Assembly (NCBI GenBank): GCA_029204225.1
Contig: CM055095.1
Span: 21,557,252 to 21,621,251, forward strand
Reading direction: 5' to 3'
DNA length: 64,000 nt
Origin: Diphasiastrum complanatum
Lineage: Eukaryota > Streptophyta > Lycopodiopsida > Lycopodiales > Lycopodiaceae
This document shows positions 2,889-48,645 of the stretch, piece by piece. Below the pieces are notes generated by a model that made no database searches, was not told where the DNA came from, and saw only the letters and a program-made list of their open reading frames with translations. Position 1 is the first letter of the stretch. Every line of letters begins with the position of its first letter. A program made the translations under genes and the position numbers.

Positions 2889-3605
2889 TCATCTATTATG
2901 AGAGCATCCTGCAATAGGAAATATGTTAGCAATAAAGGATGATGCAAAAGGAGGGTCAGCAACAGAAACTTCCTCATCATCTAGGATCTGAACTAATAGA
3001 AAAAGTACGAAATCACTCTGATATTCAACCAATCGACATTTCTTGTTGCAATAAGGACATAGTGAACTGCTTCTGAAAAGATCAAACAATTTGGTAAACA
3101 TTCTATCCAGTCTATGTCTGAAAGCTGGGAAGAAATGAACAAGCTCAATATAATGCATGTACTGGAGTGAACCTATGGAGAAAACAAGCTTACTAAGTAT
3201 ATCTCTGAATCTAACATAATGTTCATAAAAAATGTCAGAATTTGGTTGTGCAGTCTTGAAAACATGTAGATATGGCCTGAATAGGCTGTGGAAGTAGTCT
3301 AGGTTTTCAGTAATCCCAAATCCACTAAGAAATGAACTCAAGCCTGAATCTCGTGAGGATCCTAAGGAAGAGGCCGTGGAAGTAAAGTGAATATCGCGCT
3401 TGTGCGCCAGGAAGAACAGAAACAAAACTACTATATCAAGATGGCGCACAAGAGGGATATATACGACAGGCAATACCGAATATCGCACTTGTGTGCAAGT
3501 AGGTGTCGTTGAAAGCAAACGGACAACAATGCACGCGCACAAGGGTGACATGCTGTGAATTTCGATAACGAAAAAGGTAAAAAAATTAATCGGTTCTCGT
3601 GCCAT
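2889..3605 (-). pseudogene. P1-A: unrecognised protein, truncated copy of P1-B
   Basis: An open frame of about 238 codons. From about residue 70 it matches P1-B at 13.85-14.8 kb: both have LDRMFTKL, then a CPxxNKKCR segment, then V-(E/D)-(Y/F)-QS and a hydrophobic VFFLL-like stretch. The two paired cysteines may bind metal, but this is inference. The frame ends soon after this block, so the acidic middle and the second exon of P1-B are absent. The TATA-like element at 3,604-3,610 overlaps the first ATG, so that ATG is not the true start. The upstream codons are probably motif-rich leader. It lies divergent to H3U-A, as P1-B does to H3U-B. The family is not recognised. Confidence 0.6.
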
Positions 3606-4181
3606 TTATACTACATTTTTGCACGTGTGGTCAACGGTCAATGGACACATGTCTACTTTTGATTCAACTTCAGGCACTGGCACACCTGGACACATGTGAA
3701 ATGACACTTGGACATGTGTCGCATGTTCATTTGTTTGCTCGACAACATGTGTCGCTCTCACATTTGGTCATACGAATCCCACACGTGTAAAGTCACAAGG
3801 TGACACATGTCACTCTCTCATTTGTCCGTACAACTCCCACGTGTGATAGGACGTCCTTTCGCACGTGCAAACCGCGATATAAAATCACAAACTTCGATGA
3901 ATTTTTTTCACTTTTTTTTTCGCTCCGCATATCACACTTGTGCGCGTCCTTCACAATCCAAAATTCCACCTACAGCCTTCCGTGTGCACAAGTCCGATAC
4001 ATCTGCCTACGTGTCCCCCCCGTATCGCACTTTTGCATCTTTATTCAAAACTAATTGCTCTCTCTTATATTCAACTCCCACAGATCCGATATAACGTACA
4101 TTCTGTTCATACATATCGGTCCTCTATGAGATCTTTATCATCCTTCCCTGCTCATCCTCGCCGTCACGCACAAGTCCGCTA
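3389..4181. repeat. Iterated TATCG...CTTGTGCGC motif in both leaders of the P1-A/H3U-A pair
   Basis: A motif of 16-19 bases recurs in both orientations. Examples are about 3,389-3,407 (AATATCGCGCTTGTGCGC), 3,479-3,497 (TATCGCACTTGTGTGC), 3,928-3,945 (ATATCACACTTGTGCGC), 3,984-4,001 (reverse strand, TGTGCACAAGTCCGATAC), 4,022-4,038 (GTATCGCACTTTTGCATC) and 4,166-4,181 (degenerate, reverse). All lie downstream of the TATA elements, in the presumed transcribed leaders. The H3U-B/P1-B region carries the related form TATCGCATTCAAGCGC. Confidence 0.6.
3604..3884. promoter_or_regulatory. Divergent G-box-rich promoter of P1-A and H3U-A
   Basis: TATA-like boxes point both ways: TATAAAT on the minus strand at 3,604-3,610 (for P1-A) and TATAAAA on the plus strand at 3,878-3,884 (for H3U-A). 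Between them are many ACACGTGT/CACATGTG E/G-box-like elements, for example near 3,621, 3,646, 3,691, 3,713, 3,748, 3,782, 3,805, 3,839 and 3,861. In plants such boxes bind bZIP and bHLH factors, including ABA and light regulators. The P1 side shares the order CACACGTGCAAAA then TATA with P1-B. Confidence 0.6.
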
Positions 4182-4198
4182 TTGCATAGTACACATCC

Positions 4199-4990
4199 AT
4201 GGATAGGAGAAAGCAGACAAGGAGGGACTTCTTCTCTCCTGGCTCATCCTCAGCCCCTGCGGTTGTCATTTCACCTCCTGCTAGACCTAGAATGCGCAAC
4301 CGCAGCAGGTGGATCTCTGAGATACGCAAGTATCAGAGATCAATTGCTCTGTTGATCCCAAGAGCTCCATTCTATCGTGATGTCCGAAACATAACAAGAA
4401 ATGATCTTGGACTGCTGGTCAAATTTACACCCAATGCTCTTCAGTGCCTTTAGGAGGCTGCTGAAGACTACCTTAGCCTTTTTTTTGAAGATTCATTTTT
4501 GCTTGCCATCCATTCCAAGAGAGTCGCCATAATGCCCAAGGATTTTCAGCTCCTGATGAGAATGAGGGAGAGGTTCTGCGGGTTACACGTATCTCAACCT
4601 GCTGCTCCCAGACCAACTCCTCTAGATAGGACTGATCTTCCTACGAAGCGTCCTAGGAAGCAGACAACCCCCAAGAGAGCTCCAAAGAAAGTAAAGAGGG
4701 TAGACACCACAGATTCTGTGAGATCTGACCCGGAATCAGTTGTAGATGATGCTGTTGTTGATAATGTTGTAAATATAGCTACATCTGTTTTGGATACCCC
4801 TTTAATTACTGTAGATACTACACATCCACCTCCTCCTCCTCCTCCTCCAAATTTTTATACATATATAGATTCGGATGATTATCTTAAATTTGAGAAAGAC
4901 ATATCCGATGCTATAGATACAATTGGTACTACTTTTTATTTTAGACTAGATGAACTTGATTTTAGTAATTTTAGAGGTCTAGATTGGAGT
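4199..4990 (+). pseudogene. H3U-A, 5' part: histone H3-like domain with linker, cut by an inversion
   Basis: The frame opens MDRRKQTRRD, which echoes the H3 start MARTKQTARK. An H3 fold follows: SEIRKYQRSIALLIPRAPF (alphaN), RDVRNIT, then [31 protein letters not shown] (alpha2, loop 2, alpha3). One in-frame TAG (4,451-4,453) sits exactly where H3 has the Q of LQEAAE. Past the fold, a basic and then acidic proline-rich linker leads to a segment matching H3U-B upstream of its protease domain (NFR motif near 4,970). Homology ends at about 4,985-5,000, where copia 1 gag sequence in inverted orientation begins. The missing protease part lies at 27,910-28,870 on the minus strand. The last dozen codons of the open frame are copia read backwards. 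Confidence 0.85.
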
Positions 4991-5826
4991 ATCAAGATGG
5001 ACTCCATCCTCAACTTCCATATTGAATAATTGGAAGTAGACAATCTCTCACTTGGTTGCAACAAGTATGAACTCATTGAAGTCATGTAAAGTGGAGATAA
5101 ATAAAAGTGATGAACAAAAAATGTTGCTTCTCTCTCACTATAGGATCCAATAATGGTGTGCTACCATCGCCTATGCAAGATCTTGCAACAAACTGTGAGA
5201 TGATTCTCACTAGCTATCTCAATCTCTCCAAAACTAGATCTACTTCACATCAAATGATGGAGTATGGGCAAAGTTAGAATCAAACACTCTTAGCACATGT
5301 GAAATACACTAATAAACCAAATTTGACACAAATACAATGATATTGCATGAAACAAAATGGCTAAGATCTCAAAATCGTGCCTAGATCACATATAGATGAG
5401 ATTGGTAAGCATTCAACTGTGATTTTGGATCAAACAAGCAATCTTTTGACCAAACCAAATGTGTCCACCCAGATCTAGGTGCCCTACCTAACCCTCTTCA
5501 AAAGCTTATAACTTTTGATTGGCTCAACCAAATGGAATGAAACTGATTGCATCAGAAACTAGACAAAAATAGCTTCAAAACAAGCTATCTAGCAAGATTT
5601 TTGGATCAAACATGAAAGAGAACTCCCAAACTGAAATTGGATGTTCCTCACACGTGTCTGAGCTTTTGATTCCATACAGTACCAGGTCAGACCCAATCAA
5701 TGTCCTTTTGATCTCTTTTGATCCAAAATTGAACAAGATAGCTAGGAAAATGGGCCTTGACAATTTCTAGCTCAAGATTGATGAATAGTTTTCACTCAAA
5801 TGGATCAAAATGCATGGTAACCTTAG

Positions 5827-8200: not shown

Positions 8201-8396
8201 ACCTGGAACTGCTACTAGTTGTCATTAGAGAAACTTAGAGCCCGACGAGAGCCTTTGAAAAAGATGTTTTTTTATTTTTTTTTCTTATTTTTGTTGGCAT
8301 GTGGACCAATTGAAACCTTAGCTTCGGGGTTCTATGTAATGTAGAATTTTCCAAATATATATAAAATAAAAACTTTTTAAATATATTGTTGTTTCG

Positions 8397-8455
8397 TCGG
8401 ACAGCATGTGGAAATGCTATTGGTTGATGAGGCCTGCCCTTCCAGCTCATCACTG
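8397..8455 (+). promoter_or_regulatory. Conserved upstream block of D1
   Basis: TCGGACAGCATG followed about 10 bases later by a CCAAT-type TATTGGTTG and then by the inverted CTGTCCGA. The same arrangement (TCGGACAGCATG, CATTGGTTC, TGTCCGA) lies at 26,088-26,130 upstream of D2. Conservation between copies suggests a promoter element. No TATA box was identified. Confidence 0.5.
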
Positions 8456-8702
8456 TCCGAAGAGACCCAAAAATATTGAAAATGAATATGACAGATGGTT
8501 GAGAAGAGAAAATCGATGTACCATTAATGTATATGCATTGTCAAACCATGGTTAACAGGGATAACCAGAGTTAATTTGTGGTGCCAAATAGATCAGTGTT
8601 TCAAATTTTTGCCAACACTTTTTCTCAGATTCATGGCTTTTTGTCTACGCAAATTTTCAGATTCATAGTTCATTGTTTCAGATTTTTGCATGCAAATTAC
8701 GA

Positions 8703-10180
8703 ATGGCGCCATCAAGGAAGTCGTGCTCCTCAATCGACTCTGTGCTTCTATTCAACGAGACAGATAATAATGGATTATGGGTGCCAAGAAAATATTCAAA
8801 AAACTCCTGGGTTTTGATACATCCATCATCAAGAGGAGCATTTCAAAAAAGAAAAAAGGTGAAAACTATCATTTCGATCTTATTGGAAGGCCAAAATTTT
8901 GGATTTCAGAACATCATCAAGAGGAAAATCTATTTTTGAAATTCTAGTCCAACATGTATATATGCATTCAGAGATAAATGTGCAAAGATTCAACCATCAG
9001 GATCACAAAAAAAACAACTGTGAGTATTGATATTTTTGATACTTTGATTTTTGTCATTCATAAATATCTAATAGTAAACTTGCCAATCTGATCATTTTTC
9101 TCTTGCAGATTTATATCCATCCAACATAAATGAATGAGAGCCGAGTGGATCTTTAGCAAGTGTGTTAGATGTTATTCACACTGATATTGGACAGCTGCAA
9201 TATCGAGGTAGAACTGCAAAAGATCTAGCTGATAGTGGAATCTTTTTTTATGAATCAATGTACATTCCTGATACAAAAGGAAATTTTGGACAAATAGTAC
9301 CAATTCCATTACCTAGTTTTGAAAGTGATGAATGGATTGCACCAGCTGCTACAGTTTCAGAATCATTTCGTTACAAGATATATAATGATGTAAAAAATTC
9401 ATTAAAAATGAGCACGAGATCGAAAACAGGCAGATTGAGTTGGTTTATTTCCTTGAATATATTTGTGAATTTCCTTTCAAGTGTCAATATTCACAAAACC
9501 CCAACGATGTTTGTATGCAAAAATTTAGCAGATAGTTTATTATCTGAACTTATGGATAAAGGCTGGGACAAAAGATCAGATGGAGAAATAGAATACAGAA
9601 TTAAAATGTCTTCCATGTGCTTCCATTATCAAATTGAAAAACAAATGTTAAGCTTATGCTTCCATTATCAAAGATGGAAAAAAAAATAAAGGTAAATGGG
9701 TGCCACTCGATCAAGACTTGGAAGCAAGTGGACATTCAAAACGAAAAAATATTGAAATTATATAAAATGATGTCGTTTTGACATGTGTTGAGCTGGAAGA
9801 AAATTGGAGTCTAAACTACATCCGGCGGGAACTATTGCTCCTACAAGATGATGTACTTTCGGACTTCAGATTCATTTTCAATGGTAAACTCGTAAGTAAC
9901 TGTAAACACTTGATCTTTTATGAATAGTTTCAATCAAAACTTTCTAATACAATTTTGTACTAATTCTAACTAACTTTGTATTAGCTTTATGCAGGTACAT
10001 AAAAGACATGAGCTCGAGATCAAATGCAAAGATATTGACGAAACAATCCAACTTATGGAAGAACACTCAGATTCACTATCAACAAACACATGCCAATCAT
10101 CATGTCTTTTTATCATTATAGAAAAATTGCATTCCATTATTAGACTATGGACACAAGCTGATTGTAAGAATCTATTGTGA
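8703..10180 (+). pseudogene. D1: unrecognised three-exon protein, decayed
   Basis: Three exons are inferred by comparison with D2: 8,703-9,019 (donor GTGAGT), 9,109-9,891 (acceptor TCTTGCAG, donor GTAAGT) and 9,995-10,180 (acceptor TTTATGCAG). Shared segments are KNSWVL-HPSS (exon 1), LVQHVYMHS (end of exon 1), LDVIHTDIGQLQYRGR, ADSGIFFYES, IPLPSFESDEW, LSWFISLNIFV and PTMFVCKNL (exon 2). Damage includes a frameshift in exon 1, a TGA shortly after the start of exon 2 and a frameshift after about 9,680 with further stops. No known domain is recognised. Its 3' end faces that of H3U-B, 90 bases away. Confidence 0.65.
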
Positions 10181-10270
10181 TATCAATATAAAACAACCCA
10201 TAAACGGGTTGTTTACAAGTAAAATGATTGTATCTTTTTTTTTTATGTCTCTCTATTTACAAATAGATCT

Positions 10271-12379
10271 CTATTCAATCAATTTTTCTATATTTTCTAT
10301 TTCAGTATTAGGAACTGATAAAGCAACAGCTCCTTCTATAATCTCCCCCTCCTCTATTTCGGGAAGGGCCTCAATGCCTTTTAAGACAAGAGGAATATCT
10401 GCTACAAAATTGCCTTCCTCTGTATTAGGAAGGACTTTTATTTTTTTTTGATCATATAAAATAAGATCTGCATCTTGCACAACCTGAAAGGCTGTTAAGA
10501 TAGGAGCATATTCCTTTTGAGGGCCTTCGATTGCAGGTGCAATGCTTACACCGTACTGGGCAAAGGTTCTGATCAACTCTAGCCGAAATCTATATACATC
10601 ATCAAGAGTATACGACTCAAGAGTGAACTGTCATCACAAAACACGAGAATCAGCAAATTACAAACAATGATAGTAATAAAATATGAATCAGAATGAAATG
10701 AACTACAAATGAATAGAATATTGTCTTTTCAATATCTACGTCCATTAGTAAATTATACCATTCAAAAAATAACTTCGTATTGTATAGGACGAACCATGCA
10801 CAACTAAAAGCGTCATTCTGTTGTACACACTGCATATAGAGAACAAAAATTAGTAATATTATGATAGAAATTTTATTTATGTTATGACGATACATTTGAT
10901 TTAAGAAAAAAAATACATGCATATCAGAGATAAATTGAATATACCTTCAGAGATTTGATGGTTATATCTCCAATTGAAATTGCCGTTGTCGGTACTTTTC
11001 GAACGACATCATGAAGTAGAGAATCAAATCCTCTATGTGTATTTGCAGCTGAGTTTAATTTTACACATAGAAAATTTGATACTCCCTCCTTATTTATCTT
11101 TACAAATAAATGTTTAGGCTCCAATGCCGACTGCAACAACCAAGATACAAATATCGATAAATCCATATTTATGAAAAATTCCGTTCTTATTAACATAATG
11201 AGGCATGCAACAATTCAGAATAAAGCAACAAAAACAAAAGAGCAATCCCTACTTATTTTTATATGGAATCAAATAGAATTTCGCCATAGGACTGCACTCG
11301 ATAAAATAGACAGTCTTCTCAAAATTGGCTTCTTTCGCCTTTACCGCTCTTATGAAAAATGGACTAACTACAAAAACTGTACCATGAGAATCGAAACTAA
11401 TACTATTATGCAAAAATGAAACACTGGCCTCTACTATTGCATCTGAAATTTCTGAGGTCTTATCTTTAAGCTCGGCACAAAATTTAGGACCTAATCTAAA
11501 ATTTCTATGTGTATTTGGAAGAAAAAAATCAAAAAGTTTGTCGAGAAGATCAATTTTGTTAGCTAGGTAGGTCTCGTATTGATTATAATGGTCAGAATAA
11601 AAAAAAATCTGGGCTGGATCGTATGAAATTCTCACAAAAAGATTATGTACATGAGGGGTAGAAAGAGAAGTGAAAACATTATTTACAGATTTCTCTGTTA
11701 TTTTGTCTAGATCCTCTTGGGTAATCAACAATTTTGGTGATGAAACCTGCTGAGGAATTGGACGAATAATAGGAGGAGGACTGGGTGAAGATTCTCGATC
11801 TGAGTCAGATTCTCCAGTCATCTGACTCAGAGCTCAGGATGACACGGGGTCTTTTGGTAGGGATACGTCTAGGAGGAAGGGAAGCAGTTGGCCTTCGAGA
11901 TCCAGCCTTCTTGGGAACAACCTGCTTTCTCTTCCTCCTAGAGGTAGTAGGCATGTCGGTTCTATCTAGAGGCATGTTTCTGGAGGTGCTGGCATTATCT
12001 ACATGCAGACCAGAATATCTGTCTCGAAGCCTTTTGAAGATGACGAAATCCTTTGGCATGATGGTGACACGCTTACCATGCACTGCCAAAAGCAAGTATC
12101 CTCAAAAAATTGGGACAGAAAATCTTCTATAGCACCTTGCAAAGCCTGCATGGCTGTTACAGCAAAACGAACATCAAGCCCAAGTGACGGAGTGACATTT
12201 CGGACAGATCGACCGAAAGAAGCTCTAGGGATCAACAATTCAGTTGATCTCTGGAGTTTTCTGATCTTTGTAAGCCAAACCTGCTTCCTGCCACGCCTAC
12301 GGCCAGTACCAGGGGGAACACGGGAATGGGATGGCTATACAGTGGTGATGGCACGGGCGGTGGATTTAGTCCTGGCCAT
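10271..12379 (-). pseudogene. H3U-B: histone H3-like domain fused to a Ulp1/SENP-type protease
   Basis: Exon 1 (12,379-11,253) opens MARTKSTARA, almost the canonical H3 tail start: K4 is kept and the K9 position is A. Then come KIRKLQRSTELLIPRASF, ALQGAIEDFL, QFFEDTC and AVHGKRVTIMPKDF, the H3 fold. A basic then Ser/Asp/Pro-rich linker follows, and then the start of a C48 protease domain (VVSPFFIRA, KFYLIPYKN). Exon 2 (11,130-10,945) carries the catalytic HWSLN. Exon 3 (10,829 to about 10,725) carries QQNDAFSCAW with catalytic Gln and Cys. Exon 4 (10,627-10,271) carries YRFRLELI and an acidic tail. Such enzymes remove SUMO from lysines. Damage: TAG at 12,335-12,337, a 1-base loss near 12,087-12,091, frameshifts near 11,820 and in exon 2, and a lost donor after exon 3. 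Confidence 0.85.
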
Positions 12380-12464
12380 CATTCTCGGAAGAAGAAAATC
12401 AACAAAAAGAAGTTTGAAATAAACAAAAGTGGATCAAAACAAAAAAATTTGCGACAAATGGGAG

Positions 12465-13845
12465 CTTGAGATCGATACCAGCACTGAATATCGGTTTCGA
12501 GCACAAGATCTATAGAGATTATATGTAGAAAAAGATGTGCGCTCGAAAGCGATATTGCACAGCAGGCGGTATCGAACTCAAGCGCACTGTGAGAGAGCGG
12601 AAGCCTGAAGGATGAAAGAGCACGCTTGAGAGCGATATCAGGAGCTAAAAGCGAGAATTTTGCAAAAAAAAATAAAAATTTCGAGGGCTTATATATACGA
12701 AATTTTTGTACGTGTGAAAAGACGGTCGAGACACATGTCGTCAGATGATTAGACCACGTGGAATGTCCGTACTGATTATGATATACCAATTATGAGGCCA
12801 CGTGGGCTGAGACACGTGCGCGAATCCCTGATCGATGCGTGTCATTCTCGCACGTGACAGATGTCAGATCTATCCTTTTAGGTACGACGCATTTATTTTG
12901 CCAATCAAAAGTCGACACGTGTTCCTTCGTCACTTTTTCACACGTGCAAAATAATTTTTATAAATAGATCTTTTTGGGAACGAATTCTCATGCAAATTCA
13001 CGTTTGCTTTGTCGGATATCGATTTCAAGCGCGCCGCTTGCTCTCATTACAACTCGTTGGCTATTATGCGCCTGGATCCGATACTGCATCGTATGGTATC
13101 GCATTCAAGCGCATCTCGCATACCTTTTCTTTTCTGGTCATTGTTCTTGCGTTTGGATCTGATACTCCAACTTCAAAAATCTCTCTCGAGCGTTCGTTGA
13201 TTGGACGTGCTTGTCGAACCAGGGGTTTACGCCTGAGAGCGATATCTTTGTTTAAAATGTCTAATTTTGAATCCAGTTTAGTTTCTTTTTTTAATGAATT
13301 TTTGAGACACGTGTCGTCTGATGATTAGTCCACGTGAAATGTCTATACTGACAATGATGACCAAATTATAAGGACACGTGGGCTGTGACACGTGCGCGAA
13401 TCCCTTGACGACGCGTGTCCGTGATAGATGTCAGATCAATCATTCAAGGTACGATGCATTTATTTGGGCCAATCACATGTCGACACGTGTTCCTTCGCCA
13501 CTTCTCCACACGTGCAAAAAAATTTATATAAATAGGTATTTTTCGGCTCAGATTTTCACGCAAATTTATGATTTCTTTGTCGGATATCGATTTCAAGCGC
13601 GTCGCTTGCTCTCATTACGTCTCGTTGACTATTATGTGCCTGGATCCAACACTGCATCCTCCGGTATCGCATTCAAGCGCGTTTCGTATCCCTTTTCTTT
13701 CCTGCTTGTTGTACTTGCGCTTGGATCCGATACTCCAGCTTCCAATATCTCTTGCGAGCGCACGTTGCCTGGACTTGCTTGTCTGACCTGGGGTTTGCGC
13801 CTGAGAGCGATATTTGGAACTTCAGTTCTGTTATTTTTGTTTAAA
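12465..13845. promoter_or_regulatory. Divergent promoter region of H3U-B and P1-B with iterated leader motif
   Basis: On the H3U-B side TATATATAAGC lies on the minus strand at 12,688-12,698. On the P1-B side TATA elements occur twice, at about 12,955-12,968 and 13,523-13,536, because the region is duplicated. G-boxes (CACGTG) cluster at about 12,754, 12,799, 12,813, 12,850, 12,915, 12,941 and at the matching sites of the second copy. The leaders carry about a dozen copies of a TATCG-N-CAAGCGC type motif in both orientations, e.g. 12,569-12,584, 12,622-12,639, 13,015-13,032, 13,096-13,112, 13,582-13,600 and 13,662-13,680. Confidence 0.6.
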
Positions 13846-13890
13846 ATGTCAAATTTTGAATCCAATTTGGTTTCTTTTTTTAATGAATTT
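12728..13890 (+). repeat. Tandem duplication of the P1-B promoter, leader and first codons
   Basis: Copy 1 is about 12,728-13,303 and copy 2 about 13,304-13,890, a unit of about 580 bases. Both contain the G-boxes, TATA, motif-rich leader and a start codon followed by MSNFES-LVSFFNEF (ATG at 13,257 and 13,846). Copy 1 then runs directly into the start of copy 2, so its frame is cut short. The second copy leads into the P1-B body. Confidence 0.85.
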
Positions 13891-15326
13891 GGTAATACTA
13901 ATAGGTATTCTACCTTCTACAACTGAGGGCCCTGGTGTGGAGGCTGTTTCTGAGATATATCTCAGATTTAAGTCCTTGTTCAATACTCCGTTATTCAGGT
14001 CTCAGAATAAAGACATGATTCATTATCAGGACTTGGTGGCACTCGATAAGCATATCTATAAAGCTAAGCTTGATAGAATGTTTACCAAGTTACATAATGA
14101 TTTCAAGTCTGTAGATGAGTGTCCAATTCATAATAAAAAATGTAGATTTGTTGATTTTCAGTCTGCTTTTGTTTTTTTCCTTTTGTTAAATATTTCTAAC
14201 GATTTGGACTCTGTGCCCTCCACTTCTAAAGCAGCTTCTTCTAGTGGTACAAAGTCTAAAAAGTCAAAGATTGTAGATATAGAAACCTTTTTTATTGATA
14301 CGAGTGTTGATTTAGATGATTGTTCTGAATTTGATCCTACTCGAAATAGGTCTACCTTTATAGGCCCTAGAACACCCACCACCCTTTCTCCTTCTGATAA
14401 ATGTTTGATCACTTTGCCTACTTATAATATAGATAATAATTTCTTTTTGACAATGTCGGATATATTGGATCTTTTTTACTTCACTGAAGTTGAGACTCTT
14501 TGTATTTTGAGCAAAGAGCTTGATGAATTTTCGGATATTATTGATTTTGATGCTGATGATCTTCTCCTTGGTGTTGACGATGTACATAATGATAGATTTT
14601 ATTCAGGGAAAGATTGCTTGAAAATGGATGTGGAGGAAATGCGCAACAAAGAAGATGATCTGCCTTCTGAGGAGGAGTTTCTTAGAATCCAAAGTCAACT
14701 TAAATTTCCACAGCCAACTGCCTATTCACCAACAATATTGACATCGAAAGGTGGACATAATATTGATGGTGAGACAGTAATCAAAGAAGACAAAGCCGAA
14801 TGTGTAAGTTTTTGTCTCTTATCAAGTACTAGTAGATTTTTTATGTCAGATTATATACTGGAGCTTACTTTGTTTTTTATCATTTCAAAAAACAATTTTC
14901 CTTGATGATTGCGCAATTCATCGAGGAGGGCAAAAATCTTCTGCGGGAGAATTTTCAAGAGATCATGCACTCGGGCACTATCTAAAGTCCTTCAAGAATA
15001 ATGAGATAAGTGTTGCCCATTCAAAGTTTCATCAACATGGTGAAACTATGATTATGGCAATCAAGGCACTGTCTCATTTTCTTGGAGGACATAATTTTAA
15101 TAAGGTGCATAAAATAATTTTTGTAAAGAAAACTATTGCGGTTAAAATTTTAGGATATGGACCAGTGAATTCCATGTTCAGATTATCTCATTTTGCAGTG
15201 TGTGCTGCTTACGTTGATCTTAGTAAGCATGAAAACTATGAGCTATTGGATCCATACGAAAGAAAAAAATTGTTGCATGATTCTAAGTTGCAACTTTCAT
15301 TGGAAAAAATATTGGAAGCAGATTAG
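13846..15326 (+). pseudogene. P1-B: unrecognised two-exon protein, nearly intact
   Basis: The start is ATG 13,846 (MSNFESNLVSFF). One frameshift near 13,890-13,920 leads into a long open frame to a GTAAGT donor after 14,803. Exon 2 begins about 14,850-14,900 and ends at the TAG at 15,324-15,326. Features in order: LDRMFTKL, the CPIHNKKCRFVDFQS segment with two cysteines, a hydrophobic VFFLL stretch, a long acidic Ser/Asp-rich middle, then a more compact end containing HGETMIMAIKALSHFLGG and LDPYERKKLL. P1-A at 2.9-3.6 kb matches only the first part. The family is not recognised. The gene is divergent to H3U-B and converges on G4 with a gap of 60 bases. Confidence 0.6.
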
Positions 15327-15386
15327 ATACTGCTGAATTGTACTTTGTAAATATTTTTATTTAATATACAAAATTTTATTGTGTGT

Positions 15387-18070
15387 CTATAGCCTACTGG
15401 CTTGTATAAATTTGCATGCTTTTTGAAATTTTTTATAATCCGTCAATTTTGTATTATGACGAATTTGGATTCTTCTGTAAAACCATTGAAAAAGTTGCAG
15501 TATATAGCTGTTTTTTGTGCTAGTCCCGCCATGTTGTGTACTTTTATGAAATGCCGCTCTTGCTTGCCAATGAGATTTTTCCATTCCTTGCGATGACCAT
15601 ATTCTAAGACTTCCACTATTTCTTGCAAAGAATGTCGAATGATGTCGTAATATGTGCTGCATGTCATAAAAACACAATCTAAATCAGTAACAAAAGTATC
15701 TAATTTAATTGCACATATTTGTCTATGGTAGTGTAAAATCAAAATCTTACCATATAATGTGTTATATGATCAACACCCCATGCACTCTGAACTGCATCCA
15801 CAAATTCATTGGTTGTTTTCTGTATCATTTGAACATCAGTATTTGAAAATTTATTTTTTCTCAAGTATTTCACCATGTTGTCTAACTTTTTTCAAACTTC
15901 TACTTTGTGTATACGAGTAGAACCTTCTTCTTCGAAATCTTGAGTTGCTGCAATAATTTCTTTCCAAACCGTGTATTGAACCTTAAACTGTTTGCCAGAA
16001 TAATTTGATAAAAATCTTCGAGCTTTAAATCCTCCAATGCTCGGCTTGCATGGAATATTTCATGTTTTACCTGATAAATTGTCATCTTTTTTTATTTTAA
16101 CGTGGCCTTTATGTAAGCTTGCTTTGGACAACACATCCTCTCATCTGGAAATAGCTTCCTTTGCAGAGGCCTCTGGCTCGGAATTCCATGCAAACAAGAT
16201 GTGAAGATATATTATTTTTTCTATAATACGCACCTCTGCATGCAATGTACAGATATGAACATTTCGTAGAGTAATCGGTAGTACAGGTTTCCAATTAGGA
16301 TCTTCTCGATCTCTTGATATTCATGTACTCCTTGTCATGTCTTTTGCTATTTTCATGCAGTACAAACAAGGGTGTTTAGAGTTGGCGCCATGAGATACAT
16401 TGAACATACATTTTAATGTCTTTAAATCTTCTACTAGATGCCATTCAATGTTGAAAGTGCCAATTCTAGGAATATTGAGTGGAACTCCCTCCATGTGATT
16501 TTTTATGGTGGCAAGATATAAATTTTCTCTTAAATATCCATAAGAGAATGTTATGGTCTTCTTTCAGCACCTATAAAAGAATACAAAAACGTGATTAGCC
16601 TCGTAATATTAACACAGAGAAGATTTTAGATATGAAATCCATATTCAAATTATTATCCCTATTTATTATGCAAAGGAACTGCTATACCTGAAATGCTGCC
16701 AACCACCAGATATCATTTTCTGATTGAACACTGAAATTGAGGCCTTCTGAGTCCTCTGAATTTGAAAGTGCTCCATTCATGATTGTGAGACTGACTCTTT
16801 TCATTTTTTGTCCTTTTATAATTTTAGACTCATCTAACTTGAGAACAACTATCAACTTATTATTGACATTCTCATTTGTAGTACCGTAAAAATCTATGAT
16901 GAATGTTAATAACTGATTAATGTCAATAAATAAATTGTTGGAATTGTTATATGCTAGACTTTCTCCTTTCGAGCAATAGACTTCATTGATATGAGATGGA
17001 TTACCATGGAAACTTTTTAATATTTACCTGTGCAAATGCCTCCTTTATCATCTTAAACATTGTTGCATATGCTTCCCTACTGATGCTAGAAAATTCACAT
17101 GCCCCTGAAGCAATGTAGTGTCTAATATTTTTCCAACTTCATCCTTAATGTTATCAGTAACTGAAGCCTTAATCTTTTTCATTTTGTTATTATTTAACAT
17201 TGATTTCATAGATTTAGAAGTCAAGATAGAGCCTAGTGAGTTTCCAATTGAAATCTCATCGATCAAATGGTCTTCAACCACAATGCTGATCTGCATTGCA
17301 AACATAATGTTCATGAAAATCTCACTAGAAATTAGGACACTCATAGTATTCACAACAGTATATAATAAGCAAATCAACAGAAAGTTGAAATGCATAAATA
17401 ACAAAATTAGTGATTATGAATAAATCAAAAAGTTCAAGCAATTTTTAGTACCAAATAAGCTATAACTTGAATGTACGGATTCGTCTTTTTCTATGACCTC
17501 CTCTAGATGATAGATCACATATATCCTTGTTTACCAGTCTTTTCCTCTTGTTGCTTTGGACCTTTCTGTTGAGCACATCCATATCTTTAACAAGAGACAA
17601 ATATGAGATACGCATGGATTGAAATGCAATTTTTATCTCATCATTACTAGTTGTATAATGATGCAAAGAAGATTTCAACCTTTGGATCTCCTCTTTGAGC
17701 ATCTCATTTTCATCCAAACAAGTTTTTATCTTTGTAGATTTTTCTTCGCACTCCTTTGATATTTTCCTTAATTCCTCTTCCAAATAATGTATTCTTTGCA
17801 TTGAATGTGCATTCCCATAGAGCATCAAATTCTCACAGTAACCAAAGAGGCCATTTTTACCATGACACATATAGATTATTAACTGACTCACCGAATGAAA
17901 ATCTGGATGTTGCAATGAACATGGATCAATAGGATACAATGTTCGTGATGACCATAAATCTACATGTTTTAGCTTTTCCTCCCTATATCGGACCATATCA
18001 CAAGTTGACAATTTGGGTTGCTTTGAATTTCTTGTCCTGAGCGGAGCATATTCTGGTGACAGATCCACAT
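15387..18070 (-). pseudogene. G4: transposase-like gene, probable DDE/RNase H fold, decayed
   Basis: Four exons are inferred on the minus strand: about 18,070-17,460, 17,290-16,688 (acceptor TGCAATGCAG), 16,570-15,751 (donor GTAAGA) and 15,656-15,387. Exon 1 holds a coiled coil (YLEEELRKISKECEEK). Exon 2 has IRHYIASGACEF and LIVVLKLDESKI. Exon 3 has EWHLVEDLK, then a CLYC cysteine pair and later IHKVEV. Exon 4 opens HILRHHSTFF and has SSQGMEKSH followed by TQHGG. The D of KLDE, the D of VEDLK and the E of GMEKSH could form a DDE triad. This resembles large uncharacterised transposase-like proteins of other eukaryotes, but I cannot name the superfamily. There is one frameshift near 17,010, one near 17,100, and four in-frame stops in exon 3, all TGA. 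Confidence 0.55.
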
Positions 18071-18169
18071 GAAGATGATAAAGCTTTGTTATCAGTACAG
18101 TAGTATAGTAACAAACAACACAATGACAATAACAAAACTAGAGATGGCGCTAATGACTCTGTTGGAGAT

Positions 18170-18366
18170 AGAGATGGCGTAGGCTTTCTTCAGAAATGTC
18201 ACTTCTAATTTAAATTTTTGAGTGTTCCCAACTATTGGGAGGGAATATTTCAGCATTTTAAAAAATTATATCTTAACTATGGTTAAACACTAGTGAATTT
18301 TGATGTGACTAAACTAAGGTGCATTCATTTACATGGAAAGTAGTGCGGGCAGATGCGTAAAGAAGT
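18170..18366 (+). repeat. Dispersed repeat, copy 1 (second copy at 50,888-51,084)
   Basis: About 195 bases starting GAGATGGCGTAGGCTT and ending GATGCGTAAAGAAG, highly similar to 50,888-51,084 in the same orientation. A shared internal block reads ATTGGGAGGGAATATTT. No clear terminal inverted repeats. It may be a MITE or another short element. It sits about 100 bases upstream of the first recognised G4 exon. Confidence 0.75.
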
Positions 18367-18369
18367 TAG

Positions 18370-18675
18370 AAAATGATATTATAATTACTTTATAGTTATT
18401 TTTCTCTCTCCTACATGGCATTTCTTATAGGGCCCTCTTTGGGCCCATATTTTTTCTAATGGTTAGTCAACTGCTTGGATGGTGTTAGAGCCAAAAAATC
18501 AGCATACAAACCTACAAAACAATTTCATAACAAAAACTCATACAACTATTGTCTCATGGGAAAATCATAGAACTACTCATCATAATTGAAGATTCTGCTC
18601 AAAAAAACAACTAAGCTTCACAAATGTATCATAAAATTTACATATTTGTCATTGGAAAGCTCAAAAAGACATGTA
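18370..18675. other. AT-rich DNA, no gene seen
   Basis: No coding region or repeat could be supported between the dispersed repeat and the hairpin. Confidence 0.4.
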
Positions 18676-20725: not shown

Positions 20726-21469
20726 CTAGCTTGAGTCACTGTATGATTCAATGTGAAATTCCGCTTTCTTTGAATAACACAGTCCATAGTCTTTTGTTTT
20801 CTGGAGATATTGTAGTACTCTCTTTGCCAACTTCCAATGTAACAATCCTGGGTTCTGATTATATTGGCTCAGCCTGTATACTGCAAATGCTATATCAGGT
20901 CTGGTGTTGTCTACTAGATATAACAATGATCCAATCAGCCTGCGATAGGGTGTTCTGGCCATTCGTTCTTCTTCCTCGAGGGTCTGCGGACAATCTGCCT
21001 TGTTCAATATTGTTCGAGGTATCATGGGAGTTTGCACACCTTTGCATTCGAGCATGTTGAAGTCTTCAATGATCTTTTGAGTGTATTTTTGTTGATGAAG
21101 ATACAACTTACCACCTTCAAAGTCTCTCACAATCTGCAAGCCTAGATAGGAAATTAAGTCAACATAAACAGCTAAAATGAATATTTCATTTTGGACATAT
21201 TTGATATAGACATTTGATTCAACAAATAGTGGTCTGAAGCCTGTGGAATGTAGTGCTTCGTCCTTCTTTCTATACCATTGTCTTGCTGCTTGTTTGAGAC
21301 CATAAATGCTTTTATTCATGTGACATATGTATTCTGGATATTCTTGGCTTACAAAACCAAGTGGTTGGTCCATGAATAAGTCTTCTTCTAATTCCTCATG
21401 CAAGAAAGCAATTTTCTCATCCACAATATGGATTTTCAAATCATGAGCCACTTCATACACGAATAACAA
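20726..21469 (-). pseudogene. Copia 2 reverse transcriptase fragment (RVT_2)
   Basis: Contains the typical copia segments DLKIHIVDEKIAFLHEEL, MDQPLGF, IYGLKQAARQWYRK, the AVYVDLISYLG region (the active-site YVDD is damaged) and NTRPDIAFAVYRLSQY. Flanking RT sequence continues in other frames, so it is disrupted. Confidence 0.85.
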
Positions 21470-22087
21470 ACAAATTGATGTATGTTTGACTACTGGTGAG
21501 AGAGTGTCAGTGTAGTCGATCCCATACTTCTATGAAAATCCTTTAGCAACCAACCTTGTCTTGTATCTGATGTTTTTTCCATCAGGACCTGTTTTGATCT
21601 TATAGATCCACTTGCACTTGACTGATTTTCTGCCATCAGGTATAGGTGCAAGTGTCCATACATTGTTCTTGTACATTAATGACATTTCATCCTCCATTGT
21701 CTGAATCTAGCGATCTTTATCTGGTCCATCTACATCTTCCTCGAATGTTTGAGATTTGTCAAAGAATCCACAAAATTCGATGGTCGTATTAAAAACATCC
21801 TGCCCATACATTTCTGGTGGTTTACGTTGCTATCTAATCTTCTTACAGGTGGTTTCGAGTTTGATTCTGCAGGTTTTGAGTTCAATTCTGATTCAAACTT
21901 TTCTGCTGGAATTCGAACTGGTGATTCGAGTCTGTCAGGCACTCGATCTTGACCTCCCTCTAAATCTAGTAACTCTCTTTCATCTTTTGCTTGTTGTTCT
22001 TTTGTTGTCATTGGCAGATCATAATAATTTTTGAAAATTTCATAGCCGACTAGATCACTATCTGCTATGTATTTCATCTCATCAAAT

Positions 22088-23180
22088 TCAACATCTCAAA
22101 CAATTTTTATTTTGCCAGTTTCGAGTACAAACACGATAATATGACGAATGTAACTCGAATCCTACTAGAAAAGCTTGTTTTATCTTTTCATCGAGTTTCT
22201 TTTTTAGCTTATTTGGTATGTGTCTATATACTACGCATCCAAATGTTCGAACATGTGCAAGATTTGGCTTTGACTTCCAATATATCTCATGAGGAGTTTT
22301 ATCCGGTATTCGAGATTTCAGAATACGATTCTGAAGATAATTTGATGTAGCCACTGCTTCCGCCCACAACTGTTTTGGTGCTTTTGCATGAGCCATTATA
22401 CACCTTGCAGCTTCCATTAGTGTACGATTGCTTCATTCAGCTATTCCATTGTGCTGAGGTGTGTAAGATGCAGTCTTTGTGTGCATAATATCTCGGTCAG
22501 AGCTTTGAATTCATTGGAAATGTACTTACCTCCACGATATGTGCGAATTTGCTTCAGTTTATTGCCTGTCTGCTTCTCAGCCCAACTCGTATACTCAACG
22601 AATTTCTCGAAAACTTCAAATTTGGTACGAATAAAGTATACTATAGCGAACTTGCTGAAGTCGTCAATAACGTAATGAAGTACTTTGCATCACCCAACGA
22701 CAATACTCCGAATGGTCCACAAATATTTGAATGCACAATTTCAAGTACCTTAGTTGCTTTATAAATATCCTTACTGAAAGGTGTTCTAGTCATCTCACCT
22801 TTAAGATAGGATTTGCAAGTAGTTCGAATATCTCTACTTTTGATTTCGACTCCTTGAATTCTCTGACATTTATTGGCTTGGTTCAAGGCTTCGATGTTCA
22901 TATGACATAGCCTTTTGTGCCACAGTACATCTGTTGATTCCTGAGTTTGATCGACTTGTTCAATTCTTGTTCGAATGTTCAGGTGATACAAGTTTCCTTC
23001 TCTGCTGCCTTTAGCAATCAGGTTATCAAAATCTTCCTCAAACAATCTAAAAGAGTTCTTTGTGAAGGTTACTGACATGCATGTATCAAGTATCTTAGCT
23101 ACAAATATAAGATCTTTATCAAGAGTAGGGACATAGAGAACTTCCTCCAGTTTCTTGTCTCCCTGATTCGTGTCTAGCAT
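22088..23180 (-). pseudogene. Copia 2 integrase region, interrupted
   Basis: The pre-integrase LWHKRLCHMNIEAL motif is in the frame 23,180-22,641. The C-terminal integrase part (MAHAKAPKQLWAEAV, NYLQNR, HVRTFGCVVY) is at 22,417-22,088. Stops and frameshifts separate them. Confidence 0.85.
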
Positions 23181-28877: not shown

Positions 28878-31343
28878 GTGATGGACATTGTACTTGGGAT
28901 TGAGGAGGAGCCTCAAGTCCTTCAAGAAGTACAAAAATACAAGAAGAGAGCTAGGATGGCTCTCCACTACATTAAGATGAATGTCTCTAATGAGATATTG
29001 AGGGAGATTGGTGATTGTTCTACATCCAAGGAAGCTTGGGATTGTCTCAAGTCCATCTATGAGGCTAAGAACACCTCTAGGCTCCTCACTCTTAGAAATC
29101 AAATATTCCAAAGTAGTCAAAAGAGTGATGAGAGTGCATCTAATTATGTTTTGAGAGTCAAGGATATTCATAGGGAGCTTGCATGTATTGGTGACTCAAT
29201 CAATCAAAGTGAGCTAGTCCAAGTCATTCTCAATGGCTTGAGAGATGAATATGACAACCTTGTCCAATCCTATGCTATTAAGGAGGAGCTACCAAGTTTG
29301 GAGGCCCTTCAAAGTGTGCTTATTTCTGAAGAATCAAGACAAGAGTACAAACTCTTGAGGATGGACAAGCTATCACTCAATCATGATGATGGCAAAGTTC
29401 TATTTTCCAAGCACAAAGAGAGGAGTAAGAAGCAACACCATCACTTCTCTAATGACAAAGCTAAAGACCAAGATGGAGAGGAGGAGGATACCTCTCATGC
29501 TTCTAATTCAAATCTCAAGAAGAAGATGATCAAGTGCTTTTATTGTGGCAAGAAAGGCCATTATGCCACCAATTGCTTCAAGAAGAAGAATCAACTCAAT
29601 CAAGCCAACATCACCAATGAGAAAGAAGACTATATTGCAAGTGATGGAGAAGGCTCTCTTATGGCATCAAGCTTCTCCTCTTCCACCTTCAACAAGGATG
29701 ACTCATGGTATATTGATAGTGGAGCATCTTCACATATGTGTGGCTCCAAGCACTTTTTTTCATCTATTATGCCTTATGGAGTCAAGAAGACCATATACTT
29801 TGCAAGTAAGCATGAGTGCAATATTGAAGGAGTAGGGATTATTCCCTTGAAGCTTGCATCTTCTAAAGATCTCTTTCTCAACAACGTTCTTTTTGTCCCA
29901 AAGCTTACAAAGAACATCTTAAGTGTTGGCCAACTTCTTGATAGTGGCTTTGATGTCAATTTCAATATTGACAATTGTGTGATTAAGAAGGATGGTGAGA
30001 TCCTTGCATATGGATCAAGATTTGAAGGCATCTACAAATTGGATCCAAGTGAGAGTGCAAACTCTCTTGATGTTTCTTATATTTCCAATATTTCAAAGGA
30101 GGAGGATTACACAAGATGCACATATCTTCTCTCTTCAAGTATTATGGTGTATGATTATCCCTTATTATTCAAAGCATATGTTGAGAAGAAATTCTCATTG
30201 AAGATCAAAGCTTTGAGGAGTATTGGAGCTCTTGAAGGAATAGCAGCATATGAAGTTTTATTCAAGATGAAGCCTAAGGTTGATCACCTTAGTGAACTTG
30301 GTAGTGCTTGCTTTGCACATATTCCCTTGGAAACAAGAAGGAAGGATGATCCAAGCTCATGGATCATGATTGGATACTCATCCATCAAGGAGGCCTTTAG
30401 TGTCTTTACACTCTCTATTTCAAATGTGATCGTGAATAGAGATGTCATATTGCACGAAGATTCAATCTTGGAAGTGGCCGAGATCAAGGCTTCTCAAGAA
30501 GCATCACAAGTTATCCTTTTTGAAGGTATTCAAGTTATGATGGGGCCAATGTGTGAGGAGGAGTTTCTTCTTCATATGATTTCAAGAAGATCTTCAAGAT
30601 GCATGGCCGAGTCTTTATGGCTCACCTTACATGGCAAAGAGGGGCATCTTTCATGTTGTATCTACTACAACACATTCATATATGCTTCTCTTCCTTTGCT
30701 TGAAATGCTATCTTGCTTCATTGAATTTTTTGGATCTCAAAGTTCAAGAAAAGCTATACTAGTTTTGTATGATGCTTATGGTATGGACATGTTTCTTGTC
30801 ATTATTGACTTAGATGTGTTTCCAATCCTTTTTGAAAGCAAGATATTGTATTGTCAAAAGTATGCTCTTGGTTCTAGTAAGAACAAGATTGAGCTTGGTA
30901 CTCACTTTTTTGAAAATCATGTTTTCACATGTTTTGAGGCAAATTGTAAACTCCTCTTGAGATTAAGTGAAGCATCCAAAGTGGACACTTACATCCTTGA
31001 GAGAGTAACTAGCCTAAAAAAGATCAAGATAGTCTTTGATATCAAGATTAGATCCATCATGGATATAGTTCATTGTATGTGGACTAGTCAAGCTAGAAAG
31101 CATAATCTTGATAATCATCATTGTTTCACATCTTATGATCTTGATCTCCATAATTCTTATGAGGCTTGGAAGCCTCAGATTTCTCTATTTATGGTGCATC
31201 CATCATGCAAGTGGAACTTTCAAGGCAAAGATCATCATCAAGCATGGAGGAAGCCCATGATAATAGTGGCATATTGGTGGAGCACTCTTCAAAGGCATTG
31301 GCAAGAGATCTCTACCAAAGAGATCTTATCATGGATATGGTGA
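28878..31343 (+). CDS. Copia 1 gag-protease-partial integrase polyprotein, 5' end displaced
   Basis: An uninterrupted frame of 821 codons. The UBN2-type gag core has CLKSIYEAKNTSRLLTLRNQ, then a CCHC zinc knuckle CFYCGKKGHYATNC, the aspartic protease motif WYIDSGASSHMC, and a remnant of integrase C-terminal sequence (FKMKPKVDHLSELG, FAHIPLE, IMIGYSS, VIVNRDVIL). The last 270 residues match no copia RT or RNase H motif that I can see. The true start is upstream of the inversion breakpoint (ATG at 5,085, minus strand), so the ATG at 28,878 is internal. Confidence 0.8.
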   Translation: MMDIVLGIEEEPQVLQEVQKYKKRARMALHYIKMNVSNEILREIGDCSTSKEAWDCLKSIYEAKNTSRLLTLRNQIFQSSQKSDESASNYVLRVKDIHRELACIGDSINQSELVQVILNGLRDEYDNLVQSYAIKEELPSLEALQSVLISEESRQEYKLLRMDKLSLNHDDGKVLFSKHKERSKKQHHHFSNDKAKDQDGEEEDTSHASNSNLKKKMIKCFYCGKKGHYATNCFKKKNQLNQANITNEKEDYIASDGEGSLMASSFSSSTFNKDDSWYIDSGASSHMCGSKHFFSSIMPYGVKKTIYFASKHECNIEGVGIIPLKLASSKDLFLNNVLFVPKLTKNILSVGQLLDSGFDVNFNIDNCVIKKDGEILAYGSRFEGIYKLDPSESANSLDVSYISNISKEEDYTRCTYLLSSSIMVYDYPLLFKAYVEKKFSLKIKALRSIGALEGIAAYEVLFKMKPKVDHLSELGSACFAHIPLETRRKDDPSSWIMIGYSSIKEAFSVFTLSISNVIVNRDVILHEDSILEVAEIKASQEASQVILFEGIQVMMGPMCEEEFLLHMISRRSSRCMAESLWLTLHGKEGHLSCCIYYNTFIYASLPLLEMLSCFIEFFGSQSSRKAILVLYDAYGMDMFLVIIDLDVFPILFESKILYCQKYALGSSKNKIELGTHFFENHVFTCFEANCKLLLRLSEASKVDTYILERVTSLKKIKIVFDIKIRSIMDIVHCMWTSQARKHNLDNHHCFTSYDLDLHNSYEAWKPQISLFMVHPSCKWNFQGKDHHQAWRKPMIIVAYWWSTLQRHWQEISTKEILSWIW

Positions 31344-47700: not shown

Positions 47701-48580
47701 ACAAATTTGACATGTAGATTCATCCTCAGCTCTCTGAGCCCAATTAGGGCGAACCGAACTCACTCCCCTATGCACTTACCTAAATAGGGTTACACATTAA
47801 GGATTATCAATTAGCAGGCTTTGGCTGATTCAGAATGATTGTGACTGTAGTAGAACAAAAAACTGAGCTTCTGATATTTGGTCATATACCTGTTCCAGTG
47901 AGAAGAAGCTGAAAGTGGAGGAGGTAAAAAAAGGTGGCACATGATGGGCTGTAGAAAAAACAAATAGTGGCAGGAGAGAAGAAATCTGAGAGGTCTCCAT
48001 TATGTCTTCAAATTAAGACTTTTGTTCAACAAGCATGAATGCTATATCTGGAGAATCGTTGATCAAATAAATGGGCAGCAAAGGATAAAATTTACAGAAG
48101 CAACACATCTGGCATTGTAAATCACAAAATACAGATAAGAATGAACAATCAGTGAGCCAAGCCATGGATATGTCAATTGTTCAGAATTTTTTAATAGCTC
48201 TGTCAAATCGCAGCAGACAAATATTGTTGGCTGAAGCATAGATCTGGGGGTTTTGCCCAGCATACAGAGCACATAGTTTTGAACAAAATACATAAGGTTG
48301 TTCCTGAAAGTCTCATGAATAAAGCTCGGGCTAGCTTTACTAGATAGTACTTACAAACACCAGAATGTGATTTGACTTCATGTCAAAATTCACTCTCAAA
48401 GATCTCCATTGGTTTGTAACTTGAATATCACCTATTTAGAATACTAAGTAAAATTTGGGTTTTCCATTTTCATGTAACACTTTCAAGGTTTAAATTCAAC
48501 CCCCAAGCAACAAATATGAACCTAAGAGCATTGTGTCACAATATGACATACTTACAGAAATCCATGATTCCACCTTTGCC

Positions 48581-48645
<65 letters not shown>

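What the first reader, a model, noticed from the sequence alone, without database searches (positions are those of the whole stretch)
10271..12379. A histone H3 - SUMO-protease (Ulp1/SENP) fusion gene
H3U-B begins MARTKSTARA and carries the full H3 fold through KRVTIMPKDF. It then runs through a charged linker in the same exon into a C48 protease domain with HWSL, Q-x5-C and a typical C-terminal YRFR helix. Its relative H3U-A keeps an open frame from the H3 fold through the linker into the region homologous to the protease lead-in. I know of no described H3-Ulp1 fusion. A protein that could enter chromatin through H3 and remove SUMO would be a plausible way to oppose SUMO-linked silencing. The sequence shows the domains; the function is inference.
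Basis: partly seen in the sequence, partly recalled or inferred. Interest (0 to 1): 0.92.

Follow-up and report, generated by a model that had tools for sequence, protein, structure and literature searches.

The report
Transposon-borne histone H3–SUMO-protease fusion gene
In a clubmoss genome, a repeated mobile-looking DNA element carries a gene that joins a histone H3-like protein to a SUMO-protease-like domain; the copy in this window is broken but at least one other copy is intact, so the element may make its own chromatin protein, perhaps to resist silencing.

Summary
The H3–Ulp1 gene is real, but it is cargo of a repeated DNA element, not a single host gene. At 12379–10271 (minus strand) lie an H3 fold, a charged linker and a Ulp1-like domain over four exons. 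The window copy is dead: stop at codon 15, three exon frameshifts, a lost splice donor. A copy at C4:40431875 reads through all four exons (590 aa, GT/AG introns). Exon 1 keeps H3 and the protease lead-in in one frame in 103 of 111 matches, 10 of them stop-free; only 110 of 10,252 candidates were scored. The gene sits in a 10.2-kb element (8223–18461) with inverted CATTAG termini, a transposase-like gene matching no Pfam family, a divergent partner gene and a CACGTG-rich promoter. A diverged family A has the same fusion and passes Pfam's C48 cut-off; both parts are constrained between families. Family C carries an unfused H3. The acid of the triad is Asn, not Asp, so activity is unproven. The host is probably Diphasiastrum complanatum. 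Anti-silencing is my best guess, untested. My protein and paper searches showed no such fusion. Target-site duplication, superfamily and H3-versus-CENH3 ancestry stay open.

The parts
8223..18461 (.). The whole family-B element, 10,239 bases
   Evidence: Homology between copies in unrelated places stops here; a second copy with both ends at C8:27845913-27854912
8223..8243 (+). Terminal inverted repeat, outer 21 bases (CATTAGAG... inwards)
   Evidence: 16 of 21 positions match the other end by my count
18441..18461 (-). Terminal inverted repeat, other end (...CTAATG)
   Evidence: 10 of 10 other copies fetched at this end break at the same base into different flanks
11253..12379 (-). H3U-B exon 1: H3-like N-terminus and fold, charged linker, protease lead-in; broken here
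   Evidence: stop at 12337-12335, 1-nt deletion near 12092, 1-nt insertion at 11818, in-frame 3-nt insertion at 11658-11656
10945..11130 (-). H3U-B exon 2: HWSL (His codon 11126-11124) and KLNSA (Asn at the acid position)
   Evidence: 1-nt deletion near 11108
10725..10829 (-). H3U-B exon 3: QQNDAFSC (Cys codon 10802-10800); donor lost here
10271..10627 (-). H3U-B exon 4: YRFR helix and C-terminal extension, stop
12380..13845 (.). Divergent promoter region with a ~570-base duplication (12728-13199 against 13304-13767, 84% identical) and 12 CACGTG sites
13846..15326 (+). Partner gene, divergent from H3U, function unknown, at least two exons; frame broken in this copy
   Evidence: relative of the partner gene of family A (42% over 125 aa); no Pfam family
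15340..18068 (-). Transposase-like gene, several exons, limits approximate, broken in this copy
   Evidence: 13 relatives in the protein search, one of them named (Ceratopteris); no Pfam family
9138..9686 (+). Open frame of unknown kind inside the element
   Evidence: no Pfam family
4199..5029 (+). H3U-A: truncated member of family A (H3 fold with TAG at 4451-4453, linker, start of lead-in)
2892..3605 (-). Partner gene of family A, divergent from H3U-A
   Evidence: E 2e-27 against the B partner in a small set
3606..4198 (.). Family-A divergent promoter region, 10 ACAYGTG-type sites in 593 bases

Best explanation
H3U is a cargo gene of a lineage of high-copy DNA transposons in a clubmoss, probably Diphasiastrum complanatum. 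It encodes in one protein a diverged histone H3 and a Ulp1/SENP-like (C48) domain joined by a charged Ser/Pro-rich linker. Shown: one gene over four exons, one fully intact copy, two diverged families with the same order of parts and constraint on both parts, inverted element termini, many copies. Inferred: the protein is made when the element is active, the H3 part takes it into chromatin or onto H3 chaperones, and the C48 part removes SUMO there, weakening SUMO-linked silencing so that the element can be expressed and move. The CACGTG-rich divergent promoter would be the cis part of such a system, by analogy with the motif arrays of VANDAL transposons. My odds: about 0.95 for the architecture and for its being cargo of a repeated element, about 0.42 for the whole including the mechanism.
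For: Intact four-exon copy of 590 aa. 103 of 111 scored matches fused in one frame, 10 of 103 stop-free. Family A protease region over Pfam's C48 cut-off (27.8 against 20.7 bits), Histone 69 bits on the intact B copy; Ulp1 and SENP2 are the two best PDB chains for the A+B profile, though only at E 0.14 and 0.17. Q-x5-C kept in 12 of 12 aligned B copies that have exon 3 and HWSL in 11 of 13. Between A and B pN/pS bootstrap intervals lie below 1: H3 fold .33-.65, exons 2+3 .38-.61, rest of exon 1 .57-.75. Element termini and copy number. Motif-rich divergent promoter in A and B. Known parallels: plant MULE and CACTA elements with ULP1 domains (PMC2528002, passages), VANC anti-silencing with motif arrays (PMC5735166, passages; PMC10398659, abstract), SUMO and PIAL2 in MOM1 silencing (PMC6084981, start of abstract).
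Against: No transcript or protein data. Asn instead of Asp in the triad (13 of 13 aligned B copies and L042). The intact B copy scores 12.9 bits for C48, below the cut-off. Among the 13 B copies substitutions are nearly neutral (second/third codon position ratio 0.80 in the H3 fold, 0.58 in the protease core, 0.97 in the tail, 1.09 in the linker, 2.16 in the C-terminal extension; introns 0.082), as in dead copies. The intact copy L015 lies in a truncated element and could be intact by luck. Family C has no Ulp1 part on its H3, so the fusion is not needed by all relatives. The only family-A copy read that far has Tyr for Cys. No target-site duplication shown.
Confidence: 0.42

Rival explanations
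1. Pseudo-protease: the Ulp1-like part binds SUMO without cutting it, so the protein is an H3-tethered SUMO reader or decoy.
For: Asn at the acid position in 13 of 13 aligned B copies and in L042; Ala after the Cys in B where Ulp1 has Gly; weak C48 score of B.
Against: His, Gln and Cys are kept (12 of 12 B copies with exon 3), and His-Asn-Cys triads work in papain-type proteases (recalled); family A has Gly after that position and the better C48 score.
Confidence: 0.25
2. Centromere-directed cargo: the H3 part comes from CENH3 and takes the protein, or the element's insertion, to centromeric chromatin.
For: CENP-A is the best PDB match (76.8 bits against 74.8 for H3.3); LIPRAPF and KDF in A and B resemble plant CENH3 (Arabidopsis and maize sequences recalled).
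Against: The difference of 2 bits is no test; the tree puts the transposon H3s apart from both H3 and CENH3 on a branch of 82/85; the B fold lacks the longer loop 1 of CENH3 and A is one residue longer (my reading); copies are scattered along the chromosomes, centromeres not mapped.
Confidence: 0.12
3. A helper in transposition: the H3 part binds element DNA or histone chaperones, and the C48 part processes or de-SUMOylates the element's own proteins rather than host silencing factors.
For: H3 genes in three related families of the element, with and without Ulp1; proteases are common in mobile elements (recalled).
Against: No cleavage sites or partners known; not testable here.
Confidence: 0.12
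4. A host gene family that was merely spread by, or lies next to, repeats.
For: Copy L015 is intact although its element is truncated.
Against: The gene lies between sharp inverted termini with the same neighbours in many copies; thousands of first-look candidates.
Confidence: 0.04
5. Chance adjacency or an artefact of reading through pseudogenes or of the assembly.
For: The window copy itself is broken.
Against: Intact copy, 103 of 111 one-frame matches, second diverged family.
Confidence: 0.01

Closest known systems
Ulp1/SENP SUMO proteases (Pfam PF02902, peptidase family C48)
   Same: HWSL, Q-x5-C and their order; family A over the Pfam cut-off; Ulp1 and SENP2 top the PDB list
   Different: Asn at the acid position, Ala after the Cys in B, an N-terminal H3; the intact B copy is below the cut-off
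Plant MULE-ULP (KI-MULE) and CACTA-ULP transposons (PMC2528002, passages)
   Same: A DNA transposon of plants with a Ulp1-like domain as cargo
   Different: Here fused to an H3; no Pfam transposase family on the pieces scanned; termini CATTAG
VANDAL transposons with VANC anti-silencing proteins (PMC5735166, passages; PMC10398659, abstract)
   Same: Several genes and dense short motifs in duplicated noncoding DNA of the element
   Different: No VANC homologue was looked for specifically; H3 and Ulp1 instead; anti-silencing not shown here
Fungal DNA transposons with TET/JBP dioxygenases (PMC12730594, abstract and passages)
   Same: Related transposon lineages carrying an enzyme of the epigenetic machinery as cargo
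   Different: DNA-modifying enzyme there, histone plus protease here
Histone H3 and CENH3/CENP-A
   Same: Complete H3-type histone fold by Pfam and PDB sequence matches, RVTIMPKD
   Different: Diverged, Lys 9 of the tail replaced, long C-terminal extension with a protease-like domain, carried by an element

Membership tests
Histone H3 | Histone fold of the H3 type | tested here: met
   Pfam Histone 69 bits, cut-off 26.4, on the intact B copy; best PDB chains are CENP-A and H3
Histone H3 | H3 helices in a confident structural model | tested here: inconclusive
   AlphaFold on exon 1 gave the expected helix order but mean pLDDT 31
Histone H3 | Assembly with H4 into nucleosomes | not testable with these tools
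   Needs biochemistry
CENH3 | Groups with CENH3 in a tree | tested here: inconclusive
   transposon H3s apart from H3 and CENH3 together, 82/85; CENH3 rows recalled; host CENH3 not found
CENH3 | Longer loop 1 than H3 | tested here: not met
   By eye: family B has H3 length, A one residue more
Ulp1/SENP (C48) | Pfam PF02902 at its cut-off | tested here: inconclusive
   Family A 27.8 bits (met); intact B copy 12.9 (not met); composite B 19.9 (just below 20.7)
Ulp1/SENP (C48) | Catalytic His, Gln, Cys | tested here: met
   HWSL in 11 of 13 B copies, Q-x5-C in 12 of 12 with exon 3; in the one A copy read, Cys is Tyr
Ulp1/SENP (C48) | Catalytic Asp | tested here: not met
   Asn in 13 of 13 aligned B copies and in L042
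Ulp1/SENP (C48) | SUMO cleavage | not testable with these tools
   Needs an assay
TIR DNA transposon | Terminal inverted repeats at sharp boundaries in many copies | tested here: met
TIR DNA transposon | Target-site duplication | tested here: inconclusive
   Window GT/GT, C8 copy TC/AG, C21 copy no match
TIR DNA transposon | Recognised DDE transposase | tested here: inconclusive
   No Pfam family on the pieces; model of one piece pLDDT 53
MULE-ULP or CACTA-ULP | Mutator or Tnp2-type transposase | tested here: not met
   Neither Pfam family matched on the pieces scanned; pieces, not a whole transposase
VANDAL/VANC | VANC protein homologue | not tested
   Only general Pfam scans were run, without hits on the partner gene

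The most novel reading that the evidence does not exclude
A so far undescribed lineage of clubmoss DNA transposons encodes its own histone H3 variants, stand-alone in one family and fused to a SUMO protease in two others, and uses them to build nucleosomes on its own copies that the host cannot keep SUMO-silenced: transposon-encoded chromatin, spread over the genome as a very large set of element-borne H3 genes.
Probability: 0.25. Interest if true: 0.96.

Novelty: new variant of a known kind. Interest (0 to 1): 0.86.

Why it matters
Transposons that carry Ulp1 domains or DNA-demethylation enzymes are known, but my searches showed none that carries a histone, or a histone fused to a SUMO protease. 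If the protein is made, it gives a mobile element a direct handle on nucleosomes and offers a natural effector with which to test the role of SUMO in plant silencing. It also warns annotators: of 12 sub-canonical histone matches that I read in this genome, 11 belong to the element types A to C and none is a canonical histone gene.

Tried and rejected
Viral origin: no relative of exon 1 in viral contigs (125 pattern matches, none confirmed). Retro-copy: rejected, introns are kept. Host CENH3: searched with a recalled Arabidopsis CENH3; the 13 best rows are the canonical H3 genes, and the rest of the 150 rows were not read one by one; so the H3/CENH3 question stays open. Wider distribution: exon 1 against 5.8 billion proteins gave 33 hits; none lists PF02902 and none covers more than 48% of the query; I read 10 of the 33. 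The H3 fold alone gave 7,247 hits, 120 listed, none telling; I read 5 of them. A transposase piece gave 13 relatives of 25 candidates, one named, from the fern Ceratopteris. AlphaFold on a transposase piece (pLDDT 53) and on exon 1 (pLDDT 31) was not used further; no fold search was run. Papers: the listings showed no transposon with a histone gene; several listings were capped at 6 to 12 of many papers, and the library lacks most subscription journals. Scans for PF02902 in the genome and with the transposase piece did not complete and were dropped.

Full report
What is in the window. On the minus strand, 12379–10271, there is a gene that begins MARTKSTARA, continues through an H3-like fold to MPKDF, a charged Ser/Pro-rich linker and a protease lead-in, and then, after introns, HWSL, KLNSA, QQNDAFSC and a YRFR helix. 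The copy is dead: TAG at codon 15, a 1-nt deletion near 12092, a 1-nt insertion at 11818, a 1-nt deletion near 11108 and a lost splice donor after exon 3. That H3 runs into the protease in the same exon holds only for the lead-in; the catalytic motifs lie in exons 2 and 3.

The genome. The window's genome is held: 1.74 Gb in 5,176 contigs. A Diphasiastrum complanatum protein (P0099, O6H91_20G051900) is listed with a contig of 48,528,792 bases; contig C20 here has 48,523,593. I infer D. complanatum in another assembly, or a close relative: P0099 matched C20 at only 93% over its last 61 residues. That this species has 23 chromosomes is recalled.

A repeated, fused gene. The lead-in and neighbouring exon-1 part (190 aa) matched 150 scored places of 5,598 first-look candidates. 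All of exon 1 of the best copy gave 111 matches from 110 scored of 10,252 candidates; 103 of 111 run in one frame from query residue 36 or earlier to 323 or later, and 10 of these 103 have no stop; some lie on unplaced contigs that look like duplicates of chromosome places. Scoring takes the best candidates, so this shows that fused copies are common, not what share of all copies they are. I aligned 13 B copies, the window and 12 others chosen for open frames: HWSL stands in 11 of 13 (one HCSL, one HWTL); Asn at the acid position in 13 of 13; exon 3 is present in 12 of 13, with Q-x5-C in 12 of 12. One, L015 (C4:40431875 onwards), is intact over all four exons, 590 aa, with GT/AG at the three introns. 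In a count over 23 loci (two repeat others, one is family A, one lacks the end of the exon), 6 loci, that is 5 places, have a stop-free B-type frame over exon 1. The element around L015 is truncated, so the intact gene there may be luck.

Domains. On the intact copy Pfam gives Histone 69 bits (5.5e-19) but C48 only 12.9 bits (0.097, cut-off 20.7); a typed composite gave 81.5 and 19.9 bits; the protease region of family A gives C48 27.8 bits (2.7e-6). Pfam also lists CENP-T_C below its cut-off on the histone part. A five-row profile of A and B protease regions ranks yeast Ulp1 (E 0.14) and SENP2 (0.17) first among PDB chains: weak, but of the expected fold, with His and Cys aligned. For the H3 part the best PDB matches are CENP-A (76.8 bits) and H3.3 (74.8 bits), which does not decide between them.

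The element. Homology between copies in unrelated places stops at 8223 and 18461. Both ends read CATTAG…GCCC inwards, an imperfect inverted repeat (16 of the outer 21 positions by my count). Ten of ten other copies fetched at the 18461 end break at the same base into different flanks. The 40 copies scored for that end are 99–100% identical to the window's, the 40 for the other end 94–100%; each list includes the window and its near-duplicate on C1131; first-look candidates are 1,513 and 1,518. A second copy with both ends lies at C8:27845913–27854912; two other attempts to find the second end of a copy (C14, C2) failed. The target-site duplication is unresolved: GT/GT in the window, TC/AG on C8, no match in C21. 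Between the ends lie, on the plus strand, an open frame of unknown kind and the partner gene, and, on the minus strand, H3U and a transposase-like gene. The latter has 13 relatives in the protein search, one named (Ceratopteris), and no Pfam family. I call it transposase by its place and by a pattern read by eye (D; GDLK; CxxC; QGMEKSH); its fold could not be confirmed.

Families. Family A, in the window as a truncated H3U-A with a divergent partner gene (42% identical to the B partner over 125 aa), has the whole order of parts in L042, with a stop after DHWSL and Tyr at the Cys position there. Between A and B synonymous sites are near saturation while amino-acid sites are not: H3 fold pN .304, pS .665; exons 2+3 .354.806; rest of exon 1 .460.727; bootstrap intervals of pN/pS .33–.65.38–.61.57–.75. 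So both ends of the fusion and the link between them were maintained for a long time. Among the 13 B copies, by contrast, changes are nearly neutral (second/third codon position: H3 fold 0.80, protease core 0.58, tail 0.97, linker 1.09, lead-in 0.87, C-terminal extension 2.16; introns 0.082), as expected of element copies after insertion. Family C (8 of the 10 loci fetched, chosen for long frames) has a proline-rich N-terminus, an H3 fold and then, in 7 of 8, a stop straight after it; in L046 the frame runs on for about 20 residues. No Ulp1 motif was seen in these frames. Its loci also show a relative of the B partner's second exon (7 of 8, tblastn E 8.5e-4 to 7e-8) and of the transposase end (4 of 8, E 1.2e-4 to 4e-5), in a small database that flatters E-values. 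L049 is a fourth, diverged type, not tied to an element. In the Pfam histone scan (150 candidates scored of 6,325) 13 rows at 164–165 bits are the canonical H3 class (five read as H3); the other listed rows lie at 82–110 bits. Of those I read 14: two are H3.3 exons, nine family C, one A, one B, one L049. The tree of 18 rows joins A and B (99/97) and leaves H3 against CENH3 open; 8 of 15 inner branches are weak.

Promoter. The 1,467 bases from 12380 to 13846 hold 12 CACGTG; a first-order Markov control gives 0.29 on average, at most 3 in 500 draws. Family A's 593 bases hold 10 ACAYGTG-type sites against 0.66, at most 5 (for CACGTG alone 4 against 0.41, at most 4, so not beyond the control). Nine of ten B copies have 4–12 CACGTG in the 1,467 bases upstream of the ATG; the tenth, L015, is cut off there. 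In the window most of the region is duplicated at 84% identity. VANC proteins act on dense motifs, often in tandem repeats, of their own elements (PMC5735166, passages; PMC10398659, abstract), hence the comparison.

How it most likely works. Shown: gene, order of parts, element, families, constraint. Inferred: expression, entry into chromatin, action on SUMO, anti-silencing. SUMO and the ligase-like PIAL2 take part in MOM1 silencing in Arabidopsis (PMC6084981, start of abstract), which makes a chromatin-bound SUMO protease plausible cargo; plant transposons with Ulp1 domains are known (PMC2528002, passages), and fungal ones with TET/JBP enzymes (PMC12730594, abstract and passages). The Asn in the triad keeps a SUMO-binding pseudo-protease a serious rival.

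Novelty. Transposons with cargo against silencing are a known kind; a histone as cargo, and a histone–protease fusion, I did not find in the protein search or in the paper listings. The protein search finds only relatives that share exact five-residue words, and the paper library is partial.

Noticed in passing
L037, L038, L039, L040, L041, L043, L044, L046: Family C: a high-copy H3-like gene with a long proline-rich N-terminus and no Ulp1 part, next to relatives of the B partner gene and transposase.
   Followed up: partly
L049 (C13:7457900-7458600): A further diverged H3-like open frame (QPKFMEEIKKYQKSTRLLLLRAPF...), unlike A, B and C.
   Followed up: no
window 15340-18068 (minus): Transposase-like gene with a relative in the fern Ceratopteris and in unnamed contigs but no Pfam family; perhaps an undescribed transposon superfamily.
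   Followed up: partly
window 12380-13845: Duplicated divergent promoter dense in CACGTG; a similar but shorter motif-rich region lies between the family-A genes at 3606-4198.
   Followed up: partly
window 28878-31343 (plus): Copia-type gag and pol remnants by Pfam; further copia-like frames at 20726-23180 and 40439-40960 by eye only.
   Followed up: no
window 44794-50448 (minus): Open frames that look like exons of a host BEL1-type homeodomain gene ([21 protein letters not shown]), by eye only.
   Followed up: no
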